Source: Trichostrongylus colubriformis (lineage: Eukaryota > Nematoda > Chromadorea > Rhabditida > Trichostrongylidae). Taken from it: 64,000 bases of DNA. The notes under the pieces were generated by a model. The model ran no database searches, was not told the origin of the DNA, and saw only the letters and a program-made list of their open reading frames with translations. The position numbers and the translations under genes are program-made. Below, one piece after another: positions 7,166 through 33,490 of the stretch; the stretch's first letter is position 1; each line of letters starts with the position of its first letter. The stretch spans positions 44,376,591-44,440,590 of the forward strand of contig OZ022258.1 in assembly GCA_963978905.1 (NCBI GenBank), read 5' to 3'.

Positions 7166-7195
7166 GTAGCTGTCTCATGGAAGTCAACCTAAGTC

Positions 7196-10065: not shown

Positions 10066-10345
10066 CTACTCCGCTTCAACTTCGCCTTTTGCAGTCTTCT
10101 TTTTACTGATTTTAGCTTTTACCTGCAAAAAAGTTATCAAAGCAATCGCTCCATCTTGTAATGAATACTCCACTTCTGTGTCACTTCAGAGACTTAGGAG
10201 GAATGACTGAGAAATTTAAACGAACCTTCGAGACTCCTTTTTGGACTCCTGCAACTGCTTTTTTACCCATCTTGTTGACCTTTTCAAGGACACCTGCTTC
10301 GGCGACTATCACCAAGAGGAGTAGGAAAAGCAATGTAATTCTCAT
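10066..10345 (-). CDS. secreted lysine-rich amphipathic peptide, copy A
   Basis: Two coding exons, 10345-10226 and 10122-10066, are joined over a 103 bp intron ending in TTTTTTGCAG. The product is 58 residues: a signal peptide MRITLLFLLLLVIVAEA, then a mature peptide starting GVLEKVNKMGKKAVAGV with a KAKISKKK stretch and an acidic tail ending EVEAE. Hydrophobic residues recur every three to four positions, so the core should form a cationic amphipathic helix (about 12 Lys, no Arg, no Cys). An upstream non-coding exon ends at 10565 with a GTAAG donor; its 218 bp intron ends one base before the ATG. A poly(A) signal lies at 10005-10010. A cecropin-like antimicrobial role is plausible but not shown. 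I do not recognise a named family. Confidence 0.75.
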
Positions 10346-10569
10346 TCTGAAATATGAAAGGTACCTTAATAGGGTTGATATGGCAACATAAAGTTGCAAC
10401 TGCGAAAAAGAATGCAAGGACTGCAGGAATGGCGAAGCAAAAATTTAAGATTGTCAAAAAGCTTGCTGGATGCTAATCGCAGTTGCTTATAGCTTTCTTG
10501 TGAGAGGAAAAAGGGCTTAGAAGTGAAAGCAATGTGTGATGAATACAGTCTGCATTGCTCTTACCCCTT

Positions 10570-11290
10570 ATGAAGCCCCTAGTGCTCAGTGTTTGTTTAA
10601 GCAGGACGGCTGAAGAAACATAGGAAATTGCCCCCAGTATAGCGAAGCACACGCCACAGAACAAATGTTCATGTAGAAAATGATTTTTCGTTTACCAGCG
10701 CGATAGGAACACACATTCTAATCAATAGTGAGTCTTATGTTTTCAGTAATTGTTTCGATTTTTGGTATTCCTAGTAATCTCAATCATGTTTCAATGGACG
10801 AATGGTAACCAAAAGTAAAGGAGGTAAGGGAGCACAGGAGCAAAGGTACCTTGACAGTGGTCATATGTCAATGAGAGACTGCAACTACGAAGGGGAGTGC
10901 TGAGGACGTGACAACATTAGGTAACGAATGAAGTTCTCGCAGTTCTTGATACCACCGTATTCGCCATACTTTGAGAATCGCTACTAGTAATCTTTTCTCG
11001 TCTTCATTTTCATTCAGTGGATATACAGCGAAGGTATTAGTTTATCAGGCCCCGAATAACTTTTCTAAAGGGTCGGAAGCAAATGTAGAGCAACAACAAA
11101 TTGCCATGATTTTCAGAAATAAAAAGACACAACAACGAGTAGAAAGGGTGTTTTCTATGGCGTTGTCAAACATAAACATTTTTTTTCTACATGAGAAACT
11201 TTTCCGTGGAGTGTGCTTCCTCATATTGGGGGCAATTTCCTATGTTTCTTCGGCCGTCCTGCTTAAACAAACACTGAGCACTAAGGGATT
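10570..11290. promoter_or_regulatory. shared spacer between divergent genes A and B
   Basis: Genes A and B are transcribed away from each other, so their promoters must lie in this spacer together with their first non-coding exons. About 400-450 bp in the middle is unique rather than palindromic and recurs in pairs C/D (about 21450-22000) and E/F (31880-32830, interrupted by a MITE). I could not assign individual promoter elements. Confidence 0.45.
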
Positions 11291-11517
11291 TAAAAGGGGT
11301 AAGAACAATGCAGACTGTATTCATCGTACATTGCTTTCACTTCTAAGCCCTTTTTCCTCTCACAAGAAAGCTATAAGCAACTGCGATTAGCATCCAGCAA
11401 GCTTTTTGACAATTTTAAATTTTTGCTTCGCCATTCCTGCAGTCCTTGCATCCTTTTTCGCAGTTGCAACTTTATGTTGACATATCAACCCTATTAAGGT
11501 ACCTTTCACATTTCAGA

Positions 11518-11798
11518 ATGAGAATTACATTGCTTTTCCTACTCCTCTTGGTGATAGTCGCCGAAGCAGGTGTCCTTGAAAAGGTCAACAAGATGGGTAA
11601 AAAAGCAGTTGCAGGAGTCCAAAAAGGAGTCTCGAAGGTTCGCTAAGTTTTTTAAAGTCACTCCTCCGAAGACTCTGAGGTGACAGAGTAGTGGAGTATT
11701 TGATATAAGATGGAGCGATTGCTTTGATAACTTTTTTGCAGGTAAAAGCTAAAATCAGTAAAAAGAAGACTGCAAAAGGCGAAGTTGAAGCGGAGTAG
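11518..11798 (+). CDS. secreted lysine-rich amphipathic peptide, copy B
   Basis: Coding exons 11518-11637 and 11742-11798 flank a 104 bp intron. The 58-residue product has the signal peptide MRITLLFLLLLVIVAEA and the same basic helix as copy A, including MGKKAVAGVQKGVSK and the second-exon segment VKAKISKKKTAKG. TTTCAG lies immediately before AATGAG. A GTAAG donor at 11299 defines a 218 bp intron in the 5' untranslated region; the same position could also accept a spliced leader. AATAAA is at 11854-11859. The protein equals that of copy C in the other palindrome arm. It forms a head-to-head pair with copy A. The antimicrobial-type function is inferred from charge and amphipathicity only. Confidence 0.78.
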
Positions 11799-12660
11799 AA
11801 AGCCGATAGCCTTCATAACATGTAGACTATTTTCCAAGCTGTGCATCTTCCACAATAAAACTATTTCAAGGCTTAATTCCTATTGTGATAAATGATGAGA
11901 CCACGCGGTAGGGGTCGTGCTCGAGGGGGAAATTCTAAGAAAATATGATAGTCGAATTTCATGAAAGCTTACAGAGATTCAACATCGAAGAATTTCGGAA
12001 ATCAAAGAGAAACGGACAGTGTTATGACACTGAGCAATCGCGAATATTTGTGGGTAATTATAGTGCGCATCATATACTTACAACTTGATTTTGCAAATAC
12101 AATTATGCGCCTATCCTATACACAAATTTGCTACGGAATTACTGAACGCTCTGACGCTTTAGACTGTCCATACCCAGATCAGAGTTATCGTTTCTGTTTG
12201 GTTTGTTCTAGAATTTTAGACGATCAAGGTTCAGTATTCTGAGGGCATTAGGCCACCAATTCTTCACGTCGACTCTATGTTATAGAGGTGAATTAGTGTG
12301 ATTGTGACATTCAGAGCAATTTTGTGAAATGGCACCCAGTTCAAGTGTTGATCATTGATCTACTTTTCACATGATGATTGCAAAGGATCGTTGCCAATGA
12401 GCGAGAACTGTTAATGATTGCTACATATAGTAAGGTCGTTTGGCTTTTTAGTTCTAATGAACAATGTAGTGGGACGGCTGTCTGCAAAACAAAAAAATTC
12501 TCTATATCACCGACATCATTGACCAATCGGTTTTTTTTTTTGAGCAGAGCAGATCCGACCAATTCGGAAAAAAGGTGGTGGCACATTTGATGATAGGCAC
12601 ATATTTCAAACTTTTTGAAGGCGTACCTAAAATCATCAACCGCACATATTTTCCATCGCA

Positions 12661-13949
12661 ACTGTGGATGAAGTGCAGTATTTTTCTTTATGTGTTGCAG
12701 TTTGTGATGTACCAGTTTTAGCTACGCGATATACTTTGTGCAGCGTATTACTTTACTGATTTAACAGCTATGCGAGTGGACCCATATACTACAGCGACCC
12801 ATTAGTTACATAGTTTGAGGGCTGCTATCGCAGTGGATGGTAGGGGCATCATCAAAAAGCTGTACACTTAGGCCTCTATAAAGGGTTTTTCTTAGGATCA
12901 ATCTTTACACTCAGCATATATTTTTGCATAAGTGGAGGTGGGAAGAGGTTTTGTTCTTTTTGGACTAAATAGCGTTCACAGTAGAATGCACCACTCATTT
13001 CGCTAACAGCACCAAAAGTAAGAGGAAAAAGACGAGTCTTACCATGCCTGCCTTGTGGGTCGCCGTCGCTGACAACAGGCAGGGGCGCTCGTCTGAGGTG
13101 AATGTCTTTAGTCCATAAAGTAGACGGTAAGATAATAACAAGACTACTGTAGGTCATTTCGCACCTTACCACGCACCTTCTAGCCCTGCTTGTAAGATGA
13201 CCCTATGTGATTGCTTCAACCGTCTGTGAGCCATCAAGATGCAAAAAGTAATGCAGTTTGTAACATTTCGTTGATACTCCGAAGCTCCCAAGTTTGCTAT
13301 CAGTGACCCATGATCGCGTCTCGCATGTAAGTCCGAAATTATTCTCTTTGTCCGCAATTAGCACACTAGGGGCAAATAGACATCTCACTCGCCTCTAGAG
13401 GAACCAATTCATAGGGCATGCTGAGATGGGCCGGGAGACGGTGCGGTGTAACAGGATTAGGACTTTCGCGAGTGGCCAGTAGATATGAATAGTTGAGCAG
13501 GAGTTAAAATTGCGAGATGGTGGACGATCAGTTCCGGCAGAAAGGTGGAAGCTGGAGTCAAGGTGTGGAATGCTGAGAGGCCAACTAAAGGGGTTAGTGA
13601 TTATAGGGAATCGAAAGTTAGATATGAAACGTGAGTCGATGATGTGAAAAATGGGTTTTGTGATGTTATTGAGACCACATACAACAGGAGTTGCCACATG
13701 GCCGTGGGACTTTTGTACAGAATTCTCGTTAGCACCTCTATCTCGCAACTACTTCGCCCCTTTCGTGCACCTACGTCGCTCCTAGGCATACTGGGCCTCC
13801 TCACTTAATTGACTGCTCTGTCTGTTGAGTTTTTCGCGATAGTGGCTGGTATACGAAAAAAATAAAGCAAGTTCGATATAATAGAAAACATGAAATAACC
13901 ACAAGTGTTGCAAATAATGATAGTATGGCTCCTATGTTTTCCCTTGTTG
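12661..13949. other. unique part of palindrome centre, no recognisable gene
   Basis: This begins where homology between the giant palindrome arms stops. Several short minus-strand frames (12876-13804) occur, but none has a recognisable domain. It is unique in the window. Confidence 0.5.
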
Positions 13950-14455
13950 AAACCTCGGCATAGACGCTTCTCTTTTGTATGCCAACACGAGGCTAGGTAT
14001 GGAACCTTGGTTGGCCTAACGTTTCGACCGTCTCGTCTTCTTCAGAGGCCTGAAGATGGCTCGAAGCTCTTGATTTGCAAAGTATCCAAACAAGTGCCTT
14101 CCTCCCCTCTAGCGTTTCCGGCGTCGTTTCGAAATCGCTCTCGAACAGCTCAGTAATGGAGCAACAGATTCACCCAAGATTCCACTAGCGGAGCAGTAGC
14201 TCACGCCTCAATCACATGTGTCAGCAAGAGCGAATAAGTCTTACTTGACTCGATGATTGATTCGTCCTCCGCTGGTGGAATCTTGGCTGAGTCTGTTGCT
14301 TAATTACCGGGTTGTGCGAGAGCGATCTCGAAACAACGTCGGAAACGCTAGAGCAGAGGAGGTGCTTGTTTGGATACTTTGCAAGTCAAGAGCTTCAAAG
14401 CATCTTCAGGCCTCTGAAAAAGACGAGAAGGTCGAAACATACAAAGGAAAATCAA
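13950..14455. repeat. inverted pair of Penelope-like element terminal repeats
   Basis: The left half (about 13950-14236) is in minus sense and contains GCCTAACGTTTCGACC. The right half (about 14240-14455) is its inverted, slightly diverged copy. The same landmark, with CCTCGGCAT upstream, recurs at 27337-27430 beside the Penelope endonuclease relic. That association supports these as Penelope-type terminal repeats in tail-to-tail arrangement, arms about 220 bp. Confidence 0.6.
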
Positions 14456-14554
14456 TAATAATATGCGATTGATTAACTTGCCTATATGCGTGCAATGATG
14501 TCCTTTACAGCGAATTACTGATGCACCCGATATTTCACTCCCAACATTATAAAT

Positions 14555-14618
14555 GTGCCATTATACATTTATAATGGCACAGTTTGTACCATTATAAATG
14601 TAATGGTACAAACTGTGC
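14555..14618. repeat. overlapping perfect hairpins
   Basis: 14577-14618 is a perfect inverted repeat (GCACAGTTTGTACCATTA, a six-base loop, then its complement). 14555-14580 is another (GTGCCATTATA, loop CATT, complement). A third can form between TTTATAATGG and CCATTATAAA. They share bases, so they are mutually exclusive folds. Confidence 0.8.
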
Positions 14619-14699
14619 ATTTATAGTAGCGAATTTAATTCTGGGATACTTTTGCATATTTACTCGATTAACAACCTCTTCACACATTCGTGGTATCAC

Positions 14700-15495
14700 A
14701 ACTGATGTGGTAGGCCACATTCACTTAATTGCTGACCAGTTTTGCTTGCTCGCTGACCAATTTAATTTGCAGAGTGAACTGCATTCGGGTGGAGCACATA
14801 ATAATGCAGTCGTCGATGTTACCCATGTATATGTAGAGGTGGCTTGCGGTCTATCACCGGTTTCTCAGCTTTGGCCATGAAAGCTATGGCTAGCACTGGG
14901 GTTAGACGTTGGCCCATAGCAAAACCTATAAGTTGTTTGTAGTACTCGCCTGACCACCTGAAGATCGAACACTTGAGGCATTCATTCAGCATCGACATTA
15001 TCTGTGAAATAGTAAACCGATACAAGTTGAAAGTGTGCTCATGCTCGCACAGTAGATTGTATGTAGCCTCCAGCGCGGCTAATACATTGGCGCATAAAGA
15101 CGTGACATCAAACGACTCCATGACGATGTCATCTTGGAGACTGGTACTGGACCACTTTTCGAGCAACATTTTAGTGTTGGTCAGGTGAGCGGGTTTGTAC
15201 TTGAGGAGCCGTGTTAGAATCAGGTTGAGAAACCGTGATATTCTGTCAGTGGGCCCACGCACATTGCTGATGATAGGCCTAACCTTGGACACGCTGGGGT
15301 CATTTGAGCTTAGTTCTGCCGCGGTAAGCTTATGTGTTTTGATTAGTACGTATAAAGTAGAACAAAACGGCAGATCACATTTGAGGCGACTGATGGTGGT
15401 GTAAGATAGACCTGCGACCTTTGCAACACTGCTCCAACATCTATTCAGCCTGCGACATTGCTTTGTGTATTCCTTTTCGGTCGTTTTGCAATATA
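14700..15495 (-). pseudogene. Penelope-like element reverse transcriptase, C-terminal part
   Basis: A minus-strand frame (15550-14819) carries the Penelope reverse transcriptase signatures LYVLIKTHK, VRPIISNVRGPTDRISRFLN, ESFDVTSLCANV and GFAMGQRLTPVLAIAFM. After a frameshift the sequence continues with NIDDCIIMCST, where the family has YIDD; the tyrosine is replaced by Asn. The upstream part continues beyond a mariner insertion at 15496-16745. It is non-functional: frameshifts, stops and the motif change are all visible. Confidence 0.85.
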
Positions 15496-16745
15496 TTTGC
15501 TTGAGTCGATATGAATCGGACAAACGGTAGCATTGATTTCTAAACATCATAACTCAGCAACGTGTCAACGTGAATGGACGCATAAGGTACCTTTAGAATG
15601 AGTACAAAAAGCTCTTTGAAATACTGTCAAACAAACACTCAGAATTTGTTTGATTCCGTCAACATGTTGCACGATTTCAAACCCTCCAGACACCACATCC
15701 GCAACGTAATATTCTTTCTATCGCTATCTGGCGAAGAACCCGCGGATATCGAAAGACGCCTAAAGGAAGTTCACAAGGAGCAGGACCCGTCAGAAGTACA
15801 GTGTACTTGTGGCATTCGAAGTTTGCGTCGGGCCACTATTCCATCGAAGAAAAAGACCATGAGAGACGCCCGAGGGAGCTGGATTTGGACTCGCTGCGGA
15901 ACCAGGTGGAAGCCGATCCGTATCAAACCACTCGTGAGATGGCGACCGTCTTGGAGTGAGTCAGTCCACTGTATTTCCTGGCTTGAAACTCGGTCGATGG
16001 GTACCATGCTCTAACGCAACGGGACATGGATCGGCGGTGCGAGGTCGCACTTTCGTTGCTCACCTTCAAGCGACACCACCGTTGGCTCGTCGAAATAATC
16101 ACTGGCGATGAGAAGCGGATCCTGTACTCTGACTTTCATCTCCGTGCACATTGGGTCGACAAAGATGCTGACGCGAACGACGTTCCCAATCCCAGTGCAC
16201 ACCCGAAAAGGTGATGCTCTGCATTTGGTGGAACGTACACGGCGTAGAGTGCTGGGAGCTGTCCGATGAAGGTGCAGCAGTATCCGCCGACGTCTACATT
16301 CGCCAATTACGAGAACTGAACGCAAATGTCCAAAATTCGTAACGGCGGCGCTCACATGTCTACTTCCAGCACGACAACGCGAGACCGCACATTGCAAGAT
16401 CGATCAAGGCCGAGCTGCTGTCATACAGTTGGACCGTGCTTCCACATCCACCGTACTCCCCAGAACTGACATCTTCGGATTTCCACCTCTTCTCCCACCT
16501 CTGACGCCAACGGACGGCCAAGACTTCATATCGCGTCGTCGTCAAGAAGGCACTCAAGAACTTTTCCGACGCCCAATCCCCAGCCTTCTGGAGCAAGGGC
16601 ATCCACGATCTGCCTAACCGGTCCGGTGGCGGAAGGACATCGATGAAGATGGAGCCTATTTCAAGTGAACCCCAGTTGTCGTTAAAAAGTTATACGATAA
16701 AGACAAAATTTGTCAATTTGTCCGATTCATATTGTCTCAACCTAA
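15496..16745 (+). mobile_element. mariner element (family 2), inserted in the Penelope relic
   Basis: The right end reads TCATATTGTCTCAACCTAA. The left end is its diverged inverse, with GAGTCGATATGAATCGGACA. TA flanks both ends and the element is 1250 bp. Plus-strand transposase relics include EIITGDEKRILYSDF, FQHDNARPHIARSIKAEL and LPHPPYSPELTSSDFHLF, which are catalytic-domain landmarks of mariner transposases. The frame is broken several times. It splits the Penelope reverse transcriptase; joining the flanks restores continuous Penelope-like reading (HLQDETLYCKTTEKEY). Confidence 0.87.
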
Positions 16746-19560: not shown

Positions 19561-19566
19561 CCACAT

Positions 19567-19920: not shown

Positions 19921-20899
19921 AATATGGAAGGATACCAACGGATGACCGACGGGAGCATGATTGTCCTCATGGATTTGTGTTTCCATTCATCGGTATATCT
20001 GTCTGTCTGCAGTAGTGAGCGAAAATATGTGTGGTTGCCGTTTTCAAATATACGTCCACTTTACCCTGATTACATGCTTCAAAAACTTTGAGTTATGTGC
20101 CTATCATCGAATGTTCACACCGCCTTTTTTCCGAATTGGCCGGATCTGCTCTGCTTGAAAGAATCCTATTGACCAGTTATGTCGTTGATATAACCAAATT
20201 TTTTGCTTTAGCCGACGGCCGTTCTACTATACTGTTCAATAGAACTATAAAGCCAAAGGACTTTACCATATGAAGCAATCATTACCATTCTCGCTCATTG
20301 GCAACGATCCTTTGCAATCATCATGTGAAGAGTAGATCAATGATCAACAGTTGAACTGGGTGCCATTTCACAAAATTGCTCTGAATGTCACAATCACACT
20401 AATTTACCTCCCTTATAACATAGAGTCGACGTGAAGAATTGGTGGCCTAATGCCCTCAGAATACTGACCCTTGATCGTCTAAAATTCGAGAACAAACCAA
20501 ACAGAAACGATAACTCTGATCTGGGCATGGACAGTGTGAAGCGTCAGAGCGTTCAGTAATTTCATAGCAAATTTGTGTATAGGATAGGCGCATAATTGTA
20601 TTTGCAAAATCAAGTTGTAAGTATATGATGCGCACTATAATTACCCACAAATATTCGCGATTGCTCAGTGTCATAACACTGTCCGTTTCTCTTTGATTTC
20701 CGAAATTCTTCGATGTTGAATCTCTGTAAGCTTTCATGAAATTCGACTATCATATTTTCTTAGAATTTCCCCCTCGAGCACGACCCCTACCGCGTGGTCT
20801 CATCATTTATCACAATAGGAATTAAGCCTTGAAATAGTTTTATTGTGGAAGATGCACAGCTTGGAAAATAGTCTACATGTTATGAAGGCTATCGGCTTT

Positions 20900-21180
20900 C
20901 TACTCCGCTTCAACTTCGCCTTTTGCAGTCTTCTTTTTACTAATTTTAGCTTTTACCTGCAAAAAAGTTATCAAAGCAATCGCTCCATCTTATATCAAAT
21001 ACTCCACTACTCTGTCACCTCAGAGTCTTCGGAGGAGTGACTTTAAAAAACTTAGCGAACCTTCGAGACTCCTTTTTGGACTCCTGCAACTGCTTTTTTA
21101 CCCATCTTGTTGACCTTTTCAAGGACACCTGCTTCGGCGACTATCACCAAGAGGAGTAGGAAAAGCAATGTAATTCTCAT
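20900..21180 (-). CDS. secreted lysine-rich amphipathic peptide, copy C
   Basis: Coding exons 21180-21061 and 20956-20900 flank a 104 bp intron. The product is 58 residues and the same as copy B: signal peptide MRITLLFLLLLVIVAEA, then a basic helix with MGKKAVAGVQKGVSK and VKAKISKKKTAKG and an acidic end. One silent change (ATT for ATC in the KAKIS codon region) distinguishes exon 2 from copy B. The upstream non-coding exon ends at 21400 with GTAAG; its intron is 218 bp. The poly(A) signal is at 20839-20844. It pairs head-to-head with copy D. Function is inferred from composition only. Confidence 0.78.
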
Positions 21181-22351
21181 TCTGAAATGTGAAAGGTACC
21201 TTAATAGGGTTGATATGTCAACATAAAGTTGCAACTGCGAAAAAGGATGCAAGGACTGCAGGAATGGCGAAGCAAAAATTTAAAATTGTCAAAAAGCTTG
21301 CTGGATGCTAATCGCAGTTGCTTATAGCTTTCTTGTGAGAGGAAAAAGGGCTTAGAAGTGAAAGCAATGTACGATGAATACAGTCTGCATTGTTCTTACC
21401 CCTTTTAAAGCCCTTAGTGCTCAGTGTTTGTTTAAGCAGGACGGCTGAAGAAACATAGGAAATTGCCCCCAATATGAGGAAGCACACTCCACGGAAAAGT
21501 TTCTCATGTAGAAAAAAATGTTTATGTTTGACAACGCCATAGAAAACACCCTTTCTACTCGTTGTTGTGTCTTTTTATTTCTGAAAATCATGGCAATTTG
21601 TTGTTGCTCTACATTTGCTTCCGACCCTTTAGAAAAGTTATTCGGGGCCTGATAAACTAATACCTTCGTTGTATATCCACTGAATGAAAATGAAGACGAG
21701 AAAAGATTACTAGTAGCGATTCTCAAAGTATGGCGAATACGGTGGTATCAAGAACTGCGAGAACTTCATTCGTTACCTAATGTTGTCACGTCCTCAGCAC
21801 TCCCCTTCGTAGTTGCAGTCTCTCATTGACATATGACCACTGTCAAGGTACCTTTGCTCCTGTGCTCCCTTACCTCCTTTACTTTTGGTTACCATTCGTC
21901 CATTGAAACATGATTGAGATTACTAGGAATACCAAAAATCGAAGCAATCACTGAAAACATAAGACTCACTATTGATTAGAATGTGTGTTCCTATCGCGCT
22001 GGTAAACGAAAAATCATTTTCTACATGAACATTTGTTCTGTGGCGTGTGCTTCCTCATATTGGGGGCAATTTCCTATGTTTCTTCAGCCGTCCTGCTTAA
22101 ACAAACACTGAGCACTAAGGGCTTTAAAAGGGGTAAGAACAATGCAGACTGTATTCATCATACATTGCTTTCACTTCTAAGCCCTTTTTCCTCTCACAAG
22201 AAAGCTATAAGCAACTGCGATTAGCATCCAGCAAGCTTTTTGACAATCTTAAATTTTTGCTTCGCCATTCCTGCAGTCCTTGCATCCTTTTTCGCAGTTG
22301 CAACTTTATGTTGACATATCAACCCTATTAAGGTACCTTTCACATTTCAGA

Positions 22352-22631
22352 ATGAGAATTACATTGCTTTTCCTACTCCTCTTGGTGATAGTCGCCGAAG
22401 CAGGTGTCCTTGAAAAGGTCAACAAGATGGGTCAAAAAGCAGTTGCAGGAGTCCAAAAAGGAGTCTCGAAGGTTCGTTTAAATTTCTCAGTCATTCCTCC
22501 TAAGTTTCTGAAGTGACACAGAAGTGGAGTATTCATTACAAGATGGAGCGATTGCTTTGATAACTTTTTTGCAGGTAAAAGCTAAAATCAGTAAAAAGAA
22601 GACTGCAAAAGGCGAAGTTGAAGCGGAGTAG
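22352..22631 (+). CDS. secreted lysine-rich amphipathic peptide, copy D
   Basis: Coding exons 22352-22471 and 22575-22631 flank a 103 bp intron. The product differs from copies A, B and C by one residue: MGQKAVAG instead of MGKKAVAG, which lowers the mature net charge by one. The 5' untranslated intron is 22133-22350 (GTAAG donor, TTTCAG acceptor). AATAAA is at 22687-22692. Exact positional equivalence makes it the counterpart of copy A in the other arm, yet its 5' flank resembles copy B more in places, a hint of gene conversion. Downstream lies the convergent MULE relic. Confidence 0.77.
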
Positions 22632-24808
22632 AAAGCCGATAGCCTTCGTGACAAATAGACTATTTTCCAGGCTGTGTATCTCCCACAATAAAAGAAATTT
22701 CAAGGCTTCACATAAACGTAACAAATGATGAGGCGCTCCGGTAGTGGTCATGCACGCAGGGAAAAATTCAAAGAAAATATGATGATTGTTGTTTTCATGA
22801 GGGCATACGAAGATACAACAGCGAAAGATTTCACAGCTCAAACAGAAACAGGACAATTTCAACCGTCAGTGTGATGTCACCGAGCAATTATGAAGATTTG
22901 TAAATACCTATATGCGCCTCATATGTGTACAACGCAGTTGTGGAGAAACAATTTTGCGCCCATTCTTTAAAAATTGGCTACGAAGTCTCTGAACGCCCTA
23001 TTAGTAAAAGCGCCTTTGAACTCTCCAGGCCCACACCACAATTAACGTATTTCATTAGCGCTCTCGAAATTTAGACGACAAAAAGTTGATATCATAAGGG
23101 GTCGAGCCACAAATTCTTCACAGCGACTTTATGTTATAAGCGCCGTGAATAGGTATATTTGTGACCTCAGAGCGACCCTATGAACCCCCGACCGATTGAG
23201 CTGGTTATTTGGTCGTCGACTTGCTTTTCATATAATGATTGTAAAGGAACCTTGCAAAAAAGGGAAACTAAAGATGATCGCTACCTATAATGAAGTCCTG
23301 TAACTTTTTTTGTTCCAGTGAACCGGAGTAGTGGAACGGCTGGCAACCAAAACAAATAAAAACAAATTATGGCAATAACACCGACATCATTGGTCAGATC
23401 AGTCTCTTTTGAGAAAAGCATTTGGCGAATTTTGTCATAATGATAAACGCACTCAGAAGTAGATAAACGCACTCAGAAGTAGCATCGAACATCGACTGGT
23501 CAAAAACACAAGGAGCTAACTTCAGCACCGAGCAAACTTTCACCATAACCCTCAGTGCGTAAGTTCCGGTGTTGAAAAGATGGGTATCCACGTACTCGAG
23601 CTGGACTTGAGGCACACTATCGTCGAGAGAGCATCCAGAGCCCTCACCTCTCGTGCAATCTTCATATGCCCGCCTTTCAGAAGCCTCCAAGTCCAGAAGT
23701 TTTTTCTTCACTGGAGAGTTTTTCGAGTGGCAGATATGTTCGTCGCACTATGTCTGCCTTTCATATTTTCCGCATTTCGAACTCACAACATTCTTAGTCT
23801 CACAACTCATTTTCTTAACGACTGGCAAACTTCTTCAAGGCACTTTTTATTTCCTCGTCTGCTGTCTTCGAATGTTTCAGAGCATTACCTCGGATCACCG
23901 AATATTCCTGAAAAAAATCGCTTATTAAAAACTCTTCCGATCCCACATGTTCAAATGTACCCACAGTTGCAAAATTATGAACTATAGTTTTGTTTGCATC
24001 AAGAATATCGGTGCTATATTGACATTTTTGGAAAAAATATCTTGCTGGAGGTGCTGCTGTCTCTGTTAAATCGACGCTCCCCTCTACATCAGTTTGGTAG
24101 CTTGTGCCCGCAGAGAGTTCACCCTGAAAAAATTTTGAAGAATTTCTTTCAATCATACATCTCATTAAGTAGCAAAACTAAGCGGTGGTAGTGTAGATCA
24201 GACTAGCGTGAACATGAAGGTAGAAAATGGTCGTCCCCAGATTTTTCTCGCAATTGCAGCGAAATCCGTACCCGCAAGCTCCACAGCCTTCTTTGGTGCG
24301 GTTGTTTCTCAACAAAAACAAATTCACTTCCCTTGGGGTTTACTATTTACAATAGAATATTACTCGTCTCACCATGGAATCACAAGTACAAGCTAGTTGT
24401 TGTACCTTGTGAACCCCTCCACCTTCTGTCACTTACCATAGGCCACTCCTACTACTTTCACATCTTCTTGCCTTCTTCGAGACCATTTCATGACCTTTCA
24501 TGTTAATGATGTTGCTGTGAAAGGCAATGTCATCTTCCCATCAGTCTTCTTTGCATCTGCAGGAGGTACACCTTTCAAGGTAGCACTTTGATGGCGCAAG
24601 CAATTTTTGACAATCCCTGGTTGTGCGATCTTCCTCTTGCAGTGATTGAGATAATTATCTCCACAGGCCTGAGTGGTGCATGTCCGGTTTAGTGTAGGGC
24701 AGCTCGTGATTAAGATGCATGTGGAAGCCCTTCCCAAGTGAAAAGTATCCATGCAAAGGATCTCGCTCGCGAATCTCTCCAGCTGTTCGATACGGTGACT
24801 CCTTAATA

Positions 24809-25325
24809 TTAGGTTGGACGGGAAGTTCTGGGACACTTTTTGTTTTTTCCTGTAGAAACCTGTAAAGAATTGTGGGACAGTCCATGGTAAGGGTATATAG
24901 ATGGAGTGTGAAGGACTCTTCACTAGTCTGGTTATCACCACTATGGCTTCGACAAGCGGCGAATCTGAGCCTATTTCGCGAGAAGGTCTTCGACTGCTGA
25001 TTCTTCATGAGTACCGCCTTGGTAGTTCTGCGCGCCTGGCGGCCGACAGAATCAACCACTCGATGGGTGCGAACACCACTTCGAAGTCTACGGTGATTCG
25101 GTGGTATCAGCGTTTCGGTGAAGGACAGACAACGCTAGAAGATGAACCACGCTCAGGACGTCCTCCGGTCTTCGATGTCGACGCCCTGACAGCTGCCGTT
25201 GAAGAAGATCCCCGTCAGAAGATCCCCGATGGTGCATACTTTGGTGACTGAAGTTACATGTGAATAAAATTAAAATAAATTGAATTTTTCTCACAAGGTG
25301 TCCCAGAACTTCCCGTCCAACCTAA
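24809..25325 (+). mobile_element. mariner element, deleted to 517 bp (family 4)
   Basis: The terminal inverted repeats begin TTAGGTTGGACGGGAAGTTC, with TA on both sides. The left arm of the giant palindrome carries the precise empty site (CCTTAATAATATTATGGG in reverse sense, near 7883-7900). One arm therefore gained the element after the arms became similar. Only the N-terminal part of the transposase is kept. Confidence 0.92.
24943..25251 (+). CDS. truncated mariner transposase, DNA-binding domain only
   Basis: This intact 102-codon frame (an upstream in-frame ATG at 24901 would add 14 residues) starts MASTSGESEPISREGLRLLI. It contains the bipartite helix-turn-helix region of mariner transposases, with STVIRWYQRFGEGQTTLED and SGRPPVFDVDALTAAVEED. 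It stops after PRQKIPDGAYFGD with no catalytic triad. A full enzyme is about 340 residues. TATATAG lies at about 24893. Such a product could bind the terminal repeats of its family; that is inference. It may equally be a fortuitously open remnant. Confidence 0.6.
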   Translation: MASTSGESEPISREGLRLLILHEYRLGSSARLAADRINHSMGANTTSKSTVIRWYQRFGEGQTTLEDEPRSGRPPVFDVDALTAAVEEDPRQKIPDGAYFGD

Positions 25326-26045
25326 TAATATTATGGGATACGGTAATTCCTTGATAATATCTTCGGATATGGAATCTGCTCGCGGCGAGTATAATAAGCG
25401 CACATTCAAAGGTACCACTTGTACTCTATATATGAACAAAAATGGTGCTGCCTAGACTTTTGCAGGTGTGTTCAAAGCGATGAGTATCCCGTGGTAAACT
25501 CATTGTGATCTGCAAAGCGACCAATCCAGGGCACCTTACCATTATCATTCCACCGCGCTTCTTCTGCATTTACTTTTTCAGAGTCACAGAGCGCTGGTCG
25601 CTCAATTAAATTCGTTTTATTAAATTGCTAACACTGTGCGGGAGAACTCTGAAACCTGTCATCAAAGCTGTGCGTGTCATCTGCCATGAATAGTTCTACA
25701 TCAGAGTCAGGCACCATCACCTTTATCTCTCAGAACAATTTGAATGCTTCATCCTCCGTCATCCTAAATATCACAATTACCTCCATAAATGTAGCACTGT
25801 CGGGGAAGTAACAACACCTGTGGGATTGTAGATAAGCAGCAAGAAGCCTTCTTTTATACCACTCATCCGCTACAATCACTCTTGCCAAACGAGCCCATTC
25901 ATCCGCTACAGTCACGGTTTCCAAACGAAGAGAATGTCGCGTGAAATTAAATGTGTTGTCTATTGATATCCCTTGCCGACCATATTTCCTCAGCCATGAT
26001 TTCTGCACTGGAGTCACCTACTTATCTTGACTATCATTAGATAGC

Positions 26046-26319
26046 TACTTTCTTTTGCGTCATTTCGTGAGGTGTAAAGAAAGGACGGCTCTGGTCCCAC
26101 AATGTCATCGACTTTCTGGTTCCCGTCTGCTATTGCTTCCTAGTCTGTTCCGACTAGCCCCATATGAGGCCCATGCATGACTGATGGATTTTTCTTCGAA
26201 AGCCACTTCTTTTGTATTTCGTGCCTCGTTAACATGGTTTTTTGTTGGTCAAAAGCTTGAACTTAGGGCTTTTTAGCTCCAGGTTCGATGATTTCCCCAT
26301 TCCTACCGGTTGCCATATT
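26046..26319. other. outer flank of giant palindrome, no gene
   Basis: Part of this (to about 26130) matches 36600-36660. No reading frame with a recognisable domain is present. Confidence 0.4.
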
Positions 26320-26324
26320 TTAAA

Positions 26325-26877: not shown

Positions 26878-26882
26878 TTAAA

Positions 26883-27260
26883 CTTTTGAATTATTTTTTC
26901 TTTACTAGACATGCGAGTACGACAACGAGTTAGCTCGGCTCCCTACGATCAGTCACGATTTACCCATGAAGTGCAATCGCTGTCCGTCGTTAGTCAGTCG
27001 AACTGACGAACCGCTGTGGTGCGTGTTTGGCAGGTCTCCTTTTTTTGTTTTTTCAGCTCTTTTTTTCAGGCAGAATGCATTCGGCATTTAACTGATCAGT
27101 GCATATGCGTATAAGTATATAGAGACCGTGAATGTGCGTTTGAGTTACTGTCCTATCTCCATTATGTTCAGCCACGTTCCCAATGAATAACAAACTGCTT
27201 TTTATTCAATTTCAAATTTACTTTTAGATTCGGAATTTCTAGATATTTTTCAGAGGTATG
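26883..27260. repeat. extension of the peptide-MULE unit, shared with 36790-37545
   Basis: This segment aligns with 36790-37545 (minus the Tc1-like element there) and its last part with 42046-42110. It shows the uninterrupted sites of both the Tc1-like element (AAGTATATAGAGACC near 27113-27127) and the CR1 LINE (near 27240). No coding content is recognised. Confidence 0.65.
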
Positions 27261-27336
27261 CAAGACGTATCGAGTCTAGTAATGTGCGTTTTCCTGCAAA
27301 CTCTCCAATCAGAAGTTCCAACTTCTCTCTTCGTAG

Positions 27337-28360
27337 AACCTCGGCATCGTTATTAGTTTGATATTCTTCTGTTGTGCCAACGAGGTTTTAAGGTGGAACA
27401 TTTATTTACGGCCTAACGTTTCGACCAGATCGTATTCTATCCACTACACTACCAAACGCCTTATCCCTCTAGCGGTTCTGACGAAACTCAAGGAAACCGC
27501 CGGAGGAACCCTGTACGAAAAAACATAACTCACCCAGTCCACCACCGCGGGAGCGGAACGCCGCCACTCCGTGTCAGCTGTCGTCAGTTAATGAGGGATG
27601 CCGTGCTGTCCCTATACATATATAGTATAATGGGGACATGCATGTCTCCCTCATCATATCAGTAGCTCGCAATGTGGCGCAAATGGCAAGAGATCATTCG
27701 TAATGGATAAGCACTCATTTCGGTTGTTCATACTTGGATTTCTTGCAGAAATCCAAAACGCTTCAAGCACTTTCCTGGCGGAAATCGCAGTCTCGTATGC
27801 TAGAATACTGCACTTCACATCAAAGTCGTTTCCGCCATGCTCCTCGGTCTGTGCTTCCCCAGAGGTGTTCTTGTGTTACCTAGTCTTTTACAGCAAGATG
27901 TTCTTTGATACGTACTGCTAGTCTTCTTCCAGTTTCCCCAATGTACGTTGCGTTACATGTCTGACATTCAATTTGATAGATTACACCAATTTTGGCGCAA
28001 TCCCCAGTTGTACCATACGGGCATGTAACACAATTCTCTGACACGCAACGCTTATCGTAGAGCCTATTTCGCACGAGTTGGCTTTTGATGTTGCCATTAG
28101 GGACACTCACTAAGACAACATCATCATCCAGCTGAGCTTGAACAAGGCATCTCTGAATTGCAGCAGTTACTCTGTCAGAGATGAAAGGTATACATAAGGG
28201 AACCTTATTAAGACGCGGTATCTTACGGTGCCCAGTGCTTATTCTTCTACGACGTTCTGGTACAACATAGCCCGTTTGATGCAGCTATGTCAGAAGCTAG
28301 ACGTATAGACTCTCGCCGCTCTGTCGGACCTGTGCACACATTTGCAGCCGTCTTGAACAT
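27337..28360 (-). pseudogene. Penelope-like element, endonuclease part and terminal repeat
   Basis: On the minus strand, from 28360 leftwards, the translation gives RLNKVPLCIPFISDRVTAAI, then ENCVTCPYGTTGDCA, then GVIYQIECQTCNATYIGETG and RIKEHLA. This is the zinc-binding segment and GIY-YIG nuclease of Penelope-like elements. Frameshifts follow; the remaining C-terminal sequence continues to about 27700. The terminal-repeat landmark GCCTAACGTTTCGACC is at about 27411. The upstream reverse transcriptase is lost in the N gap. Confidence 0.8.
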
Positions 28361-28560
28361 NNNNNNNNNNNNNNNNNNNNNNNNNNNNNNNNNNNNNNNN
28401 NNNNNNNNNNNNNNNNNNNNNNNNNNNNNNNNNNNNNNNNNNNNNNNNNNNNNNNNNNNNNNNNNNNNNNNNNNNNNNNNNNNNNNNNNNNNNNNNNNNN
28501 NNNNNNNNNNNNNNNNNNNNNNNNNNNNNNNNNNNNNNNNNNNNNNNNNNNNNNNNNNNN
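28361..28560. other. assembly gap (200 N)
   Basis: A run of exactly 200 undetermined bases, a conventional gap size. The sequences on the two sides belong to unrelated elements (Penelope on the left, Gypsy integrase on the right), so adjacency across it is not proven. Confidence 0.95.
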
Positions 28561-29024
28561 AATGTCTTCAACAACAACATGCAGTACGATCAGAAAGTTA
28601 CGTCGTCTTTTCGCTCACTTCGGCAACCCGCGGACTATTAGTGACAGATAACGGACCTCAGTTCACATCCAAAGAAGACTCGAAGATTTCTGCAACACGA
28701 ATAGCATCAGACACATGCAATCTCCACCATTTCACCCTCAATTTACCGGGCAAGCAGAACGCTTTGTCTATACTTTCAAGAAGAACTTCGAGAAGATAAG
28801 AGAAAACTTATAACCAGCTGAAGTACTACAAATATTTCTGCTGATGTACCGCCGAACTCCATGCTCGTGCACACCATGAAGGAAAGAGTTCAATGTTGGC
28901 GACTCAGTATGGACTATAGACTACCGTTCAAGAAAACCACGACAGACAACAGGTCAAATATTGGAGAGATACGGAAACAGGCTTTACGATGTGTCAATCG
29001 ACGGACAAATTTAAAAACGTCACG
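28561..29024 (+). pseudogene. Gypsy integrase, C-terminal part, plus strand
   Basis: Plus-strand reading continues an integrase core: LRRLFAHFGNPRT, then VTDNGPQFTSKE with the second catalytic Asp, then HPQFTGQAERFVYTFKK with the Glu. The order fits Ty3/Gypsy integrase. It lies in opposite orientation to the N-terminal part at 29025-30038 and repeats about 77 bp of it in inverted form. Confidence 0.8.
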
Positions 29025-30038
29025 CAGTCCGCGGGTTGCCGAAGTGAGCGAAAAGACGACGTAACTTTCTGATCGTACTGCATGTTGTTGTTGAAGACAT
29101 TTCGACGATTTCTGGCCATTTCGTGTAAGCGTCGACGACCACGAGATACATTTCCCCATCTACTGGTCCAGCAAAATCGGCGTGTATGCGATTCCATGGC
29201 TTATCCTCCATTGACCACGAGCAAGGCGTCGTTTTCACTGGGTTCTTTGCCTTTTTCTGGCAGCGACGACAAGTTTTGACAAATCTCTCAATGTCTTGGT
29301 TGATGTTCATCCAGTAAACGTAGTTTATGGCGAGCATCCACATACGAGTCGTCCCTGGGCGTTCGTCGTAAGTACGGTATTTCGTAAAACATCCGGGATC
29401 GAAATGCGATCTCCGATAGGTAGGCATCCGTTCTGTATAGAAAGTGATTCCCTGAGAAAGTTGGATCTTCTTGCAGTCTCAGATTTCTTTGGCCACTCTC
29501 CACTCCTCACGAAATTCAGAACATTTTACAGAACTGGATCTCTGAATGTTTCTTCCGCTATTCGTTTTATATCGACTGGCACTTTCGATAGTGCATTGAT
29601 GAATGTGGCGCACGAATTTTCTTCGATTGTGGCAATGACTACATCTTCTTCGATTTTCGGCTGATCCACGATGAGGCGGGTTAGGGCGTATGTTTGTCCG
29701 AAGCTGGAAGTATTTTGGTATTCATAGTGAAGTCGTAGTTTTCCACAATGAGAGCCCAGCGTTGAAGTTTATTAGCCGTATAATGGGTACTCCTTTCTTG
29801 CTTTCGAAAATCGTTAGAAGTGGTTTGTGATCAGTGAGCACTTTGAAATGGCGGCTGAAGATATAACGGTGAAATTTTCTTAGAGCGAACGTAATGGCGA
29901 AAGCTTCCTTCTCTACTTGACCGTGGTTCTTTTCGGCAGCTGTTAGGGAACGGCAGGCGTGATGAACTGCTTTCTCCATTCCATCCGAGAAGTGGTGGCT
30001 AATAACTGCTCCTATCCCATACTTCGATGCGTCGGCCC
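29025..30038 (-). pseudogene. Gypsy RNase H and integrase N-terminal part, minus strand
   Basis: RNase H appears first (30038-29722: DASKYGIGAVISH, CRSLTAAEKNHGQVEKEAFA, LTDHKPLLTIF). The integrase zinc-binding region and the start of the catalytic core follow (29427-29025: CRRCQKKA, IHADFAGPVDGEMYLVVVDA with the first Asp). Protease and reverse transcriptase are missing; the edge at about 30038 abuts the peptide-MULE unit. Frameshifts are present. Confidence 0.85.
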
Positions 30039-30039
30039 C

Positions 30040-31936
30040 TTTTTAATAAATCACGATTATGTTACTTTCAGGAATATTCGGTGATGCAAAGTAATGCACT
30101 GAAACTTTCGAAGATAGCAGGCGGGGAAATAAAAAGTACCTTGAAGGATGTGCCAATCGTTAGGAACAATGAGTTGGGAGACTAAAAATGCTGTAAATTC
30201 AAAACGCAATCAAGAAAATAGGAAAGGCAGACATAGTGCGACGAACAGACCTGCCACTCAAAAACCTTTCCAGTGAAGAGAAGAATTTGGGAATTTGAAG
30301 CTTACGAAAGATGGGCTCATGAAGATCGCACGAGTGGTGAGGGCTCTGAATGCCCTTACAACGACAGTGTGCCTCAAGTCCGGCACGAGTACGTGAACAT
30401 GCTACCTTACGAACAACGGAACTTACGCACTGTGGGTTACGGTGAATATAGGCTCGGTGCTGAACTTAGCTCACTGTATTTTTGACCAGTTGATGTTTGA
30501 TTTTACTTCTTGGTGCGTATGACAAGATTTGACAGCTGCTCTTCTTACGAGAGGCTGATCTGACTAATGATTTCGGTTATATGGCCAAAATTTGTTTTTC
30601 TTTGTTTTGGTTTCTAGCCGTTTCACTACTCTAATTCATTAGAAGTAAAAAAGGTCATATTACTTTATTATATGTAGCATTTTTGTCGTCAAAATTTTGA
30701 GAGCACATCATCAGTTTCCTCTTTTTGCATGGGTCCTTTACAAACATCAATTAAAAGCAAGTAGGAGATCAAAGAATCAGTTCATTCGGCTGAGGGTTCA
30801 CAAGGTCACTCTGAGGTCACAAATACAAATATTCACGGCGCTTATAACATAGATTCGGCGCAAAATTTCGGCTTGATTCCCTCAGAGGAATGCGCATATT
30901 TTTATTTGTAAAATTGAGCTGTAAGTATATGAGACGCTTTATGGTTGTTTACAAAATCTTCACGAATGCTCAGTGACATAACACTGTGGCGGCTGAAATT
31001 GTCCGTTTCTGTTCGATATGTGAAATACTTCGCTGTTGCATTTTCGTATGCCCGCATGAAATCAACGATAATCATACTGTCTTTAAATTTTTCCCAGCGA
31101 GCATGTCCACAACCGCGGGGTCTCATCATCTGTCACGTTTTATGTAAAGCCGTGAAATAGCTTTTATTGTGGGAAATACCCAGACTGGACAATAGTCTAC
31201 GTTTCACGAAGGCTATCTACTTTCTATTCCTCTTCATCCACACTTGAGCCTTTTGCGGACTTCTTTTTACTGATTTTAGCTTTTACCTGCAAAAAAAAAG
31301 TTATCAAAGAAATCCCTTCATTTTGTATTAAATACTCCACTGTTTTGTTGCTTCAGAGAACTCGGAGGAATGACTGAGAATATTAAACAAACCTTTGAGG
31401 CTGTATTTTTGACTCCTGCAACTGCTTTTTTACCCATCTTGTTTACCTTTTCAAGGACGCCTGCTTCGGCGATTACAAACAAGAGGAGTAGGAAGAGTAA
31501 AGTAAGTCTCATTCTGAAATGTGAGAGGTATCTTATCAGTGTTGATTTGTCAACATAAGGCTCACTGCGAAAGGGCATGCAAAGATTACAGGATTGGCGA
31601 AGGGAAAATATATGGTCGTTGAAAAACCTTGCTGCATCCTAAGCGCAGATGCTTATAGCCTTCTTGCGAGAGGAAAAAGGTTTTTAAATATGAGCAGTGT
31701 GCGATGAATACAGTCTGCACCGCTCTCACCCTTTTTAAAGCCATAAGTGCTCCGTGTCTGTTTGAACAGGACGGCTGAAGAAACATAGGAAATTTCCCCT
31801 AATACAGCGAAGCACACTCCATAGAACAATTTCTCATGTGGAAAATGATTTTTTCCTTCAGCGCGATAGAAACACACATTCTATTCGTTAGTGAGTCTTT
31901 GGTTTTTGAAAATCATGGCAATTTCCTGTTGTTCTA
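30040..31936 (+). repeat. E/F palindrome, left arm
   Basis: This matches 32480-36640 in reverse complement and is a diverged relative of the giant palindrome arms. It starts with a MULE-relic segment (30040-30490, counterpart of 8780-9240), passes peptide gene E on the minus strand, and ends in the divergent spacer. No other gene is seen. Confidence 0.8.
31224..31512 (-). CDS. secreted lysine-rich amphipathic peptide, copy E
   Basis: Coding exons 31512-31393 and 31286-31224 flank a 106 bp intron ending in TTTTTTTGCAG. The 60-residue product begins MRLTLLFLLLLFVIAEAGV. It keeps LEKVNKMGKKAVAGV but has KNTASK where copies A-D have QKGVSK, and the second exon ends KSAKGSSVDEEE, two residues longer and more acidic. 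The upstream non-coding exon ends at 31730 with a GTGAG donor (216 bp intron). The poly(A) signal is at 31163-31168. Coding sequence is better conserved with A-D than the flanks are, which favours a functional protein. Confidence 0.75.
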
Positions 31937-32479
31937 TTAGGTTGTTCGGAAAGAAATGCGCGTTGAATTTGTCCTTTTTTCTCTCCTACTATAAAAGATT
32001 CTTCAAAACAGTTCAATCTATTAGAAAGAGATTTTTATTGTGCATCTTTTCATATATCTTTGTCTATGTCTACTTGGTTTTTTTCAAAGAAAAAAAGTTT
32101 CAACGACTTGAGGCCGATTTCCATGTTCTTCGTCATCCAAGCTTTCATTACCGTTTTTTAAACGCTGGAACTTTGCCCGACACTTTATACAGCCAAATCT
32201 TTCTGCAAACATTATACGCATGGCGACAAATATTTACCGCTTATTGCATTGAATCTTGCATTTTTTTTGAAATTTTTTTTTCAAAATTTTGAAAAAAAAG
32301 TGAAACTCTTTTTTGAATTTTTTTCTTCAAAAAAAAAACAAGTAGATATAGACAAAAGTATTTCAAAAGATGCGCAATAAAATTCTCTTTCTAACAGACA
32401 AAACTGTTTTACAAAATCTTCTGTAGCAGAAGAGAAATAGATGGACAAAAAAACGCGCATTTCTTTCCGAACAACCTAA
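31937..32479. mobile_element. mariner-derived MITE in the E/F promoter spacer
   Basis: Terminal inverted repeats begin TTAGGTTGTTCGGAAAGAAA and extend about 170 bp inward; TA flanks both ends. The centre is A/T homopolymer-rich (32260-32340) and nearly palindromic. Pairs A/B and C/D show the empty site (GCTCTACATTTGC near 21608-21620). No transposase is encoded. Confidence 0.88.
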
Positions 32480-33203
32480 TACATTGCTTTCGACCCTTTG
32501 GAAAAATTATTTGGGGCCTGACAACTGACACCGTATTGCCACTGAATGAGAATGAAGACGCGAAAAGGTCACTAATAGCGATTCACAAAGTATGGTGGGT
32601 ACGGTGGTATCAAAAACTGCAAGAACTTCGTTAACGACCTTATGTTTTCACGTCGTCAGCACGCTCCTTGGTAGTTGCGCCTTCCATTCACATATGAACA
32701 CTGTCAAAGTACTTTTATTCCTGTGTTCCTTGACCTCCTTTATTTTCGCTTACTATTTGTCCTTTGAGACATGATGGAGATTGGAAGAAATACCAAAATT
32801 TGAAGAAACCACCATAATCATACGACAATTATTGGAATGTGTGTTTCTATCGCGCTGAAGGAAAAAATCATTTTCCACATGAGAAATTGTTCTATGGAGT
32901 GTGCTTCGCTGTATTAGGGGAAATTTCCTATGTTTCTTCAGCCGTCCTGTTCAAACAGACACGGAGCACTTATGGCTTTAAAAAGGGTGAGAGCGGTGCA
33001 GACTGTATTCATCACACACTGCTCTTATTTAAAAACCTTTTTCCTCTCGCAAGAAGGCTATAAGCATCTGCGCTTAGAATGCAGCAAGGTTTTTCAACGA
33101 CCATATATTTTTCCTTCGCCAATCCTGTAATCTTTGCATGCCCTTTCGCAGTGAGCCTTATGTTGACAAATCAACACTGATAAGATACCTCTCACATTTC
33201 AGA

Positions 33204-33490
33204 ATGAGAATTACTTTACTCTTCCTACTCCTCTTGGTTGTAATCGCCGAAGCAGGCGTCCTTGAAAAGGTAAACAAGATGGGTAAAAAAGCAGTTGCAG
33301 GAGTCAAAAATACAGCCTCGAAGGTTTGTTTAATATTCTCAGTCATTCCTCCGAGTTCTCTGAAGCAACAAAACAGTGGAGTATTTAATACAAAATAAAG
33401 GGATTTCTTTGATAACTTTTTTTGCAGGTAAAAGCTAAAATCAGTAAAAAGAAGTCCGCAAAAGGCTCAAGTGTGGATGAAGAGGAATAG
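33204..33490 (+). CDS. secreted lysine-rich amphipathic peptide, copy F
   Basis: Coding exons 33204-33323 and 33428-33490 flank a 104 bp intron. The 60-residue product has signal peptide MRITLLFLLLLVVIAEA and otherwise equals copy E, with AVAGVKNTASK and the tail KSAKGSSVDEEE. The upstream intron is 32987-33202 (GTGAG donor, TTTCAG acceptor one base before the ATG). AATAAA is at 33546-33551. Copy F differs from E in the signal peptide only (I for L at residue 3, V for F at residue 12). It lies head-to-head with E across a spacer that a MITE has lengthened. Confidence 0.75.

What the first reader, a model, noticed from the sequence alone, without database searches (positions are those of the whole stretch)
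10066..33490. Six-copy family of secreted cationic amphipathic peptides in three head-to-head pairs
Six genes (10066-10345, 11518-11798, 20900-21180, 22352-22631, 31224-31512, 33204-33490) share one structure: non-coding exon, 216-218 bp intron, coding exon of exactly 120 bp, intron of 103-106 bp, short second exon, AATAAA. Peptides have a clean signal sequence and about 12 lysines, no cysteine, and hydrophobic residues at i+3/i+4 spacing. Copies E/F differ from A-D in flanks, mid-helix and tail, yet the frame and splice sites are kept. This looks like a small nematode effector or antimicrobial family, cecropin-like in physical type but not recognised as a known family.
Basis: partly seen in the sequence, partly recalled or inferred. 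Interest (0 to 1): 0.9.

Follow-up and report, generated by a model that had tools for sequence, protein, structure and literature searches.

The report
Paired secreted lysine-rich peptides, nematode gut parasite
A sheep-gut roundworm carries an undescribed family of small secreted, positively charged helical peptides whose genes sit back to back in mirror-image pairs; they look like membrane-active defence peptides, but what they do is untested here.

Summary
All six genes lie at the stated places: two coding exons (120 + 57/63 bp), a 103-106 bp GT-AG intron, signal peptide, Lys-rich Cys-free helix, AATAAA. The "non-coding exon plus 216-218 bp intron" is only one reading; a spliced-leader acceptor at TTTCAG|A-ATG fits as well.

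The six belong to a larger family: nine head-to-head pairs (18 genes; 15 read complete) on contig C5 and unplaced C39, plus signal-peptide relatives on C3. The only protein relatives found are three Trichostrongylus colubriformis "hypothetical proteins", one identical over all 58 residues.

Pairs are inverted repeats. For the window units, the gene tree groups by unit but the sequence just upstream groups by position; that conflict argues for gene conversion between arms. Signal peptides are conserved, mature parts vary faster, yet the hydrophobic face is largely kept.

Best reading: a lineage-restricted family of secreted amphipathic cationic peptides, probably membrane-active. It fails the cecropin tests. 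Antimicrobial action is inferred, not shown; no expression data could be reached.

The parts
10226..10345 (-). Gene A coding exon 1 (signal peptide + first 23 mature residues)
10066..10122 (-). Gene A coding exon 2 (Lys-rich stretch, acidic tail, TAG); intron 10123-10225
11518..11637 (+). Gene B coding exon 1; CAG acceptor at 11514-11516
11742..11798 (+). Gene B coding exon 2; intron 11638-11741; AATAAA at 11854-11859
21061..21180 (-). Gene C coding exon 1
20900..20956 (-). Gene C coding exon 2; intron 20957-21060
22352..22471 (+). Gene D coding exon 1 (one residue change, K28Q)
22575..22631 (+). Gene D coding exon 2; intron 22472-22574
31393..31512 (-). Gene E coding exon 1
31224..31286 (-). 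Gene E coding exon 2; intron 31287-31392
33204..33323 (+). Gene F coding exon 1
33428..33490 (+). Gene F coding exon 2; intron 33324-33427
9287..12538 (.). Inverted-repeat unit of pair A/B (arms 9287-10744 and 11116-12538, 79% alike overall, 96% from -300 to +120 of the genes)
7166..12620 (.). Left arm of a large inverted duplication carrying pair A/B (98% to 20077-26048, where about 510 extra bases lie at 24812-25322)
20077..26048 (.). Right arm of the large inverted duplication, carrying pair C/D
30944..33770 (.). Inverted-repeat unit of pair E/F (arms 30944-31881 and 32835-33770, 96% alike)

Best explanation
A lineage-restricted multigene family of secreted peptides of Trichostrongylus colubriformis or a very close relative. 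Each gene makes a precursor of a conserved signal peptide cut after AEA, a cationic amphipathic helix of about 28-32 residues, a Lys-rich stretch and a short, usually acidic tail. Genes come as head-to-head pairs in inverted repeats; in the window's units arm-to-arm gene conversion keeps promoter side, leader and first exon alike within the pair while units diverge from one another. The secreted helix most likely lies on anionic membranes, as linear antimicrobial or host-defence peptides do, in the microbe-rich gut of the host. SHOWN from sequence: gene anatomy, family, pairing, tree conflict that implies conversion, conserved helix face. INFERRED: secretion, helix on membranes, cleavage of the tail, antimicrobial role.
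For: Gene models and peptides. 9 of 9 pairs on C5/C39 are head to head. Mature positions 2, 3, 6, 9, 13, 14, 17 and 21 are hydrophobic (Ala, Met included) in 8 of 8 sequences while residues vary; moment shuffle p 0.0001-0.012 in those eight and 0.00025-0.0075 in four more (related sequences, so not independent, and the 28- or 32-residue span was my choice). Net charge +7 to +13, no Cys in these twelve. Last residue Glu in the 11 proteins aligned (G, I, L not among them). Signal dN below mature dN in 20 of 21 comparisons. One helix predicted for the 40-residue exon-1 product. Conversion.
Against: No transcript, proteome or activity data could be reached. Low hydrophobicity and few aromatic residues; nAMP-LP-13, a published peptide of similar character, was only weakly active (256-512 ug/ml, PMC10414684), with a best 18-residue moment (0.566) equal to ours (0.566-0.588), so moment does not predict potency. 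L has an in-frame stop; G's tail is changed and does not end in Glu. The last eight residues carry net +1 in K and N. R has Thr at helix position 13, and Q and R Ala at position 8 (sequences), so the face is not perfectly kept.
Confidence: 0.5

Rival explanations
1. Host-directed immune modulator of the helminth-defence-molecule type: a secreted cationic amphipathic helix that binds host cell membranes or microbial products and damps macrophages without killing microbes.
For: Same gross type; four trematode HDM peptides were amphipathic helices without antimicrobial or cytotoxic action (PMC3708846, abstract and passages). Gut parasite; fast-evolving mature part.
Against: No sequence relation tested; HDMs are described there from trematodes. 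Charge here (+7 to +13) is above that of the HDMs quoted in the same passages (three under +4, one +5).
Confidence: 0.2
2. A lipid-, nucleic-acid- or matrix-binding secreted peptide with a housekeeping role (egg, sperm, gut lumen); the 97-99 degree periodicity recalls 11-residue apolipoprotein, LEA or synuclein helices.
For: Moment peaks at 97-99 degrees in the 12 C5/C39 peptides examined, against 100 for an ideal alpha helix; Lys/Ala/Gly/Val-rich composition.
Against: A multicopy lineage-restricted family with a variable mature part is more usual for interaction or defence genes. The periodicity argument is recalled and was not tested against those families; a 1-3 degree shift over 28 residues is small.
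Confidence: 0.18
3. A neuropeptide-like precursor: G-K-K in the helix would release an amidated N-terminal peptide.
For: GKK at mature positions 10-12 in most copies, including A, B, C, E, F, H, J, K, O, P.
Against: Absent in D (GQK), M (GRK), N (SKK), Q and R (TKK), while the helix continues past the site.
Confidence: 0.05
4. Non-functional duplicated DNA: open frames kept only because the copies are young or homogenised.
For: A-D are nearly identical and arms convert; L is broken; dN/dS of F-H is 0.97 (mature 1.21); 17.6% of neutral runs stay open.
Against: dN/dS 0.26-0.97 over 21 pairs, signal median 0.19; frame, splice sites and most of the helix face kept down to about 48% protein identity. 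An intact counterpart of L is annotated in another assembly.
Confidence: 0.05

Closest known systems
GCK32_015669, GCK32_019247, GCK32_022278 (hypothetical proteins, T. colubriformis)
   Same: Same family; the first holds the A-C protein entire.
   Different: Automatic models, the first two with 12 and 26 extra N-terminal residues before the signal peptide, the third partial; no described function.
Nematode cecropins (Ascaris cecropin P1)
   Same: Secreted, linear, Cys-free, cationic amphipathic helix.
   Different: No sequence similarity to P1 (shuffle p 0.62), no Trp; cecropins are reported only from Ascaridoidea (PMC10506718, passages).
Helminth AMP-like peptides of PMC10414684 (nAMP-LP-13, -249, -617, fAMP-LP-5)
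   Same: Linear cationic worm peptides; -617 is from Heligmosomoides polygyrus.
   Different: Local alignments weak: shuffle p 0.47, 0.03, 0.05 and 0.007; with ten of the 21 table peptides tested, none is significant after correction. Supplementary lists could not be read, so whether this family is in them is unknown.
Trematode helminth defence molecules (HDMs)
   Same: Secreted amphipathic helix, mostly cationic.
   Different: Described from trematodes; helix toward the C-terminus (PMC3708846, passages).
Conserved-leader, variable-mature secreted peptide families (frog skin peptides, conotoxins; recalled)
   Same: Signal conserved, mature part variable, multicopy.
   Different: Here the mature helix is conserved in class and the genes lie in inverted pairs; no homology claimed.

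Membership tests
Cecropin | Sequence signature with N-terminal Trp (PROSITE pattern as recalled) | tested here: not met
   No match in A/B/C, D, E/F; no aromatic residue in those
Cecropin | Similarity to Ascaris cecropin P1 | tested here: not met
   Local alignment no better than shuffles, p 0.62 (A/B/C variant only)
Cecropin | Occurs in Ascaridoidea among nematodes | tested here: not met
   Relatives found only in T. colubriformis, Strongyloidea in the NCBI taxonomy; restriction stated in PMC10506718
Cecropin | Amphipathic cationic helix | tested here: met
   By moment and charge only; structure not solved
CSab peptides, nemapores, diapausins | Conserved cysteine motif | tested here: not met
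   No Cys in the mature peptides examined
Glycine-rich secreted peptides | Glycine enrichment | tested here: not met
   5 Gly of 41 mature residues in A, counted by eye on the sequence
Helminth defence molecules | Sequence relation to trematode HDMs | not tested
   No HDM sequence was fetched; only physical type compared
Linear cationic antimicrobial peptides (functional class) | Kills microbes at low concentration | not testable with these tools
   Needs synthesis and MIC assay
Amidated neuropeptide precursor | Conserved Gly-dibasic cleavage site | tested here: not met
   GQK in D, GRK in M, SKK in N, TKK in Q and R
Any Pfam-A family | Significant match | tested here: not met
   11 members scanned: best E 0.0069 (DUF5550, K only, 16.9 bits against a cut-off of 25) and 0.061 (GLV1-2, one member)

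The most novel reading that the evidence does not exclude
An undescribed, lineage-restricted arsenal of membrane-active peptides in a strongylid gut parasite, in which the head-to-head inverted pair is itself the working unit: arm-to-arm gene conversion keeps promoter and leader alike within a pair (and can spread a new variant to both genes), while separate pairs diverge in the mature helix and tail. C3 loci with the same leader and layout but unalignable mature parts would be older branches of the same system.
Probability: 0.3. Interest if true: 0.7.

Novelty: new variant of a known kind. Interest (0 to 1): 0.5.

Why it matters
Cecropins are reported only from ascaridoid nematodes (PMC10506718), so whether strongylid gut parasites deploy their own linear cationic helices is a testable question. 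This gives a concrete set of 18 genes, 15 of them complete, in a livestock parasite, with a natural comparison built in: same leader, similar helix face, different mature sequences. The nine inverted pairs also offer a testable case of concerted evolution in a nematode peptide family. Only three relatives are in the protein database searched, one with a start that hides the signal peptide, so such genes may escape secretome and antimicrobial-peptide screens.

Tried and rejected
Cecropin membership: tested and rejected. Prokaryotic or viral relatives: genome contigs and viral-contig scans confirmed none (151 and 183 pattern stretches). RNA genes: no Rfam family at its gathering score and no tRNA in the window. 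Peptide fragments in the held papers: five fragments, none found; the three protein tags: none found, four hits to the letters GCK32 alone whose titles are unrelated. Neighbouring genes as clues: of 20 of the 39 long ORFs scanned with Pfam, only transposon domains passed a cut-off. L032 pair as a member: only the first 12 residues of the signal align, so not counted. C3:3127519 and C3:3130771: Lys/Glu-rich, leader-like only, not counted. Papers: PMC10414684 read in passages and one whole section; PMC10506718, PMC11021794, PMC5833154, PMC5019075 and PMC3708846 in passages, PMC11021794 also outline and abstract; the others seen only in search listings (searches listed none).

Results against my reading: F-H dN/dS 0.97 (mature 1.21); pairs G/H and M/N show no promoter homogenisation, and M and N are not sisters in the gene tree; the tree of the downstream flank (+361 to +700) does not follow position, E grouping with F and J and then A and D, perhaps because conversion reached further there; signal conservation could be selection on the leader rather than conversion; in the tract where A differs from B, C and D, A shares E/F's state at 5 of 12 sites and B/C/D at 6, so direction is not firm. 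Six of 18 genes (L, M, O, P, Q, R) lack the CAG just before ATG.
Full report
WHAT IS THERE. The window is bases 44376591-44440590 of contig C5 of a 331-Mb, 52-contig genome. All six reported genes are present where stated. From ATG each reads a 120-bp exon, a phase-0 GT-AG intron of 103-106 bp and a last coding exon of 57 or 63 bp. A, B and C are one 58-aa protein, D differs at one residue, E and F are 60 aa. The layout is a 17-residue signal ending AEA, a helix-like cationic stretch, a Lys-rich run and an acidic tail. CAG|A-ATG stands directly upstream in all six. The same spot is TATA-like in five of six; SL1 leaders are known on hookworm mRNAs (115 Ancylostoma ceylanicum long reads aligned to 5' UTRs carried SL1; PMC5833154, passages); and the deposited automatic model P0001 starts at an ATG that I place, by reading the sequence of gene A, inside that supposed intron.

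ORGANISM. Two profile searches of 5.77 billion proteins returned the same three proteins (of 442 candidates, E up to 1; of 7992, E up to 10, where only candidates sharing most words were scored). All are hypothetical proteins of Trichostrongylus colubriformis; P0001 contains the A-C protein entire. The window is that species or a very close one.

FAMILY SIZE. DNA search of the genome gave 13 matches. Protein search gave 29 at E up to 10: 18 first exons on C5/C39, the second exons of A-D, and seven weak C3 matches (E 0.004 to 3.7). Reading the loci gives nine head-to-head pairs: A/B, C/D, E/F in the window; G/H at C5:44.606-44.608 Mb; I/J on unplaced C39; K/L at 46.482-46.483; M/N at 46.590-46.591; O/P at 47.768-47.769; Q/R at 47.778-47.781. 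9 of 9 are divergent. Of these 18 genes L has an in-frame TGA, G's second exon reads into a different tail, I is cut by the contig end; 15 read complete. Six of 18 lack the CAG before ATG. On C3 a divergent pair plus one more gene (9.2235-9.2279 Mb) share the leader (hhalign E 1.3e-9 over 21 columns, nearly all signal), a phase-0 intron, net charge +6 and acidic residues near the end, but no alignable mature part. They are likely relatives, not counted as members.

PAIRS, DUPLICATION AND CONVERSION. A/B and C/D lie in a 5-6 kb inverted duplication 98% alike. Each pair locus checked is an inverted repeat: A/B and C/D 79-80% overall, E/F 96%; L009-L012, L033, L034 and the C3 locus L036 71-95% (arms may be cut by the ends of the stretches fetched). 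Within window pairs identity peaks on the genes: A/B 16 differences in 420 (-300 to +120) against 196 in 710 downstream; C/D 3/420 against 200/714; E/F 12/705 (-300 to +400) against 105/465 (Fisher p 3e-27, 6e-41, 2e-32, sites taken as independent). The A/B intron differs at 16 of 103 sites while both coding exons are identical. The main test is tree conflict. Sequence -440 to -310 groups B, C, E, I against A, D, F, J, G, H, i.e. by position in the unit for the first eight (support 100/99, 10 rows). Sequence -217 to +120 groups A-D, and apart from them E, F, I, J, i.e. by unit (100/99 and 100/100, 14 rows). Arms therefore seem to have exchanged the promoter-side region and first exon. The downstream flank +361 to +700 does not follow position for E (with F and J, 9 rows), so exchange may reach further in that unit. 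A later exchange involves D: A and D have 19 differences in 2399, 12 of them within 300 bp (0 of 5000 random placements as clustered), and there D matches B and C. G/H and K/L are sisters in the gene tree, M/N are not; G/H and M/N show no promoter homogenisation; O/P and Q/R were not profiled that way. For G/H and K/L a separate inverted duplication is not excluded.

SELECTION AND SHAPE. A-D against E/F: dS 0.27-0.33, dN 0.09-0.11, with intron and upstream differences of 17-24%. Seven representatives, 21 pairs: dN/dS 0.26-0.97; in the signal 0.09-0.67 (20 defined, median 0.19), in the mature part 0.17-1.21 (median 0.52); signal dN is below mature dN in 20 of 21 (not F-J). Several dS values are large and the regions short, so these are rough. 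On a helical wheel mature positions 2, 3, 6, 9, 13, 14, 17 and 21 are hydrophobic (Ala, Met included) in all eight sequences, 18 and 19 polar or Gly; O, P and Q fit the first set by eye, R has Thr at 13, and Q and R have Ala at 8. Moment peaks at 97-99 degrees in the 12 C5/C39 peptides and beats shuffles (p 0.0001-0.012). AlphaFold on the 40-residue exon-1 product gives one helix, pLDDT 85; a single sequence, 17 of its residues the signal, so weak support.

HOW IT LIKELY WORKS (inference). After signal cleavage the peptide would fold on anionic membranes with its Val/Leu/Ile/Ala face inward and Lys outward. The acidic end could damp the charge until removed, as pro-pieces of some antimicrobial peptides do (recalled). 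Copy number and identical A-C products suggest dosage. Against potency: low mean hydrophobicity and few aromatics; in PMC10414684 Table 7 a similar Lys/Ala peptide was weak, and 12 of 20 tested had no MIC under 100 ug/ml. Host immune modulation, as for trematode HDMs, remains open.

VERDICT. Observation right and understated; function open. A new sequence family of a known physical kind, with an unusually regular paired layout and signs of gene conversion between the arms. No paper naming it was found in ten searches of the held library, which covers open-licence papers only; supplements could not be read.

Noticed in passing
L032 (G000:C5:46642001-46652000) 2787(-) and 5671(+): Another palindrome (arms 3869 bp, 99.5% alike) carries a head-to-head pair of a different basic, helix-like peptide gene starting CAG-A-ATG-AGG with a signal-like leader; only the leader resembles the family.
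   Followed up: partly
L036 (G000:C3:9223000-9228300): Divergent pair plus a third gene with the same leader and layout but unalignable mature part.
   Followed up: partly
L010 (G000:C39:1-6000): Unplaced 24-kb contig with a pair close to E/F (94-100% by segment over the gene itself); allele or extra copy. Its J protein differs from E at two mature residues.
   Followed up: partly
window 42862-43718: Palindrome with arms of 427 nt, 93% alike, 3-nt spacer.
   Followed up: no
window 27880-28284, 29020-29478, 40187-41356, 49702-50103: Transposon remains: GIY-YIG, integrase, reverse transcriptase and mariner-type HTH domains.
   Followed up: no
window about 28360-28560: A run of N (read as X) inside a long open frame.
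   Followed up: no
P0001 (GCK32_015669): Deposited model has 12 extra N-terminal residues that hide the signal peptide.
   Followed up: partly
L011 3234(+): Copy L has an in-frame TGA and lacks the CAG before ATG; an intact counterpart (P0003) is annotated in another assembly.
   Followed up: partly
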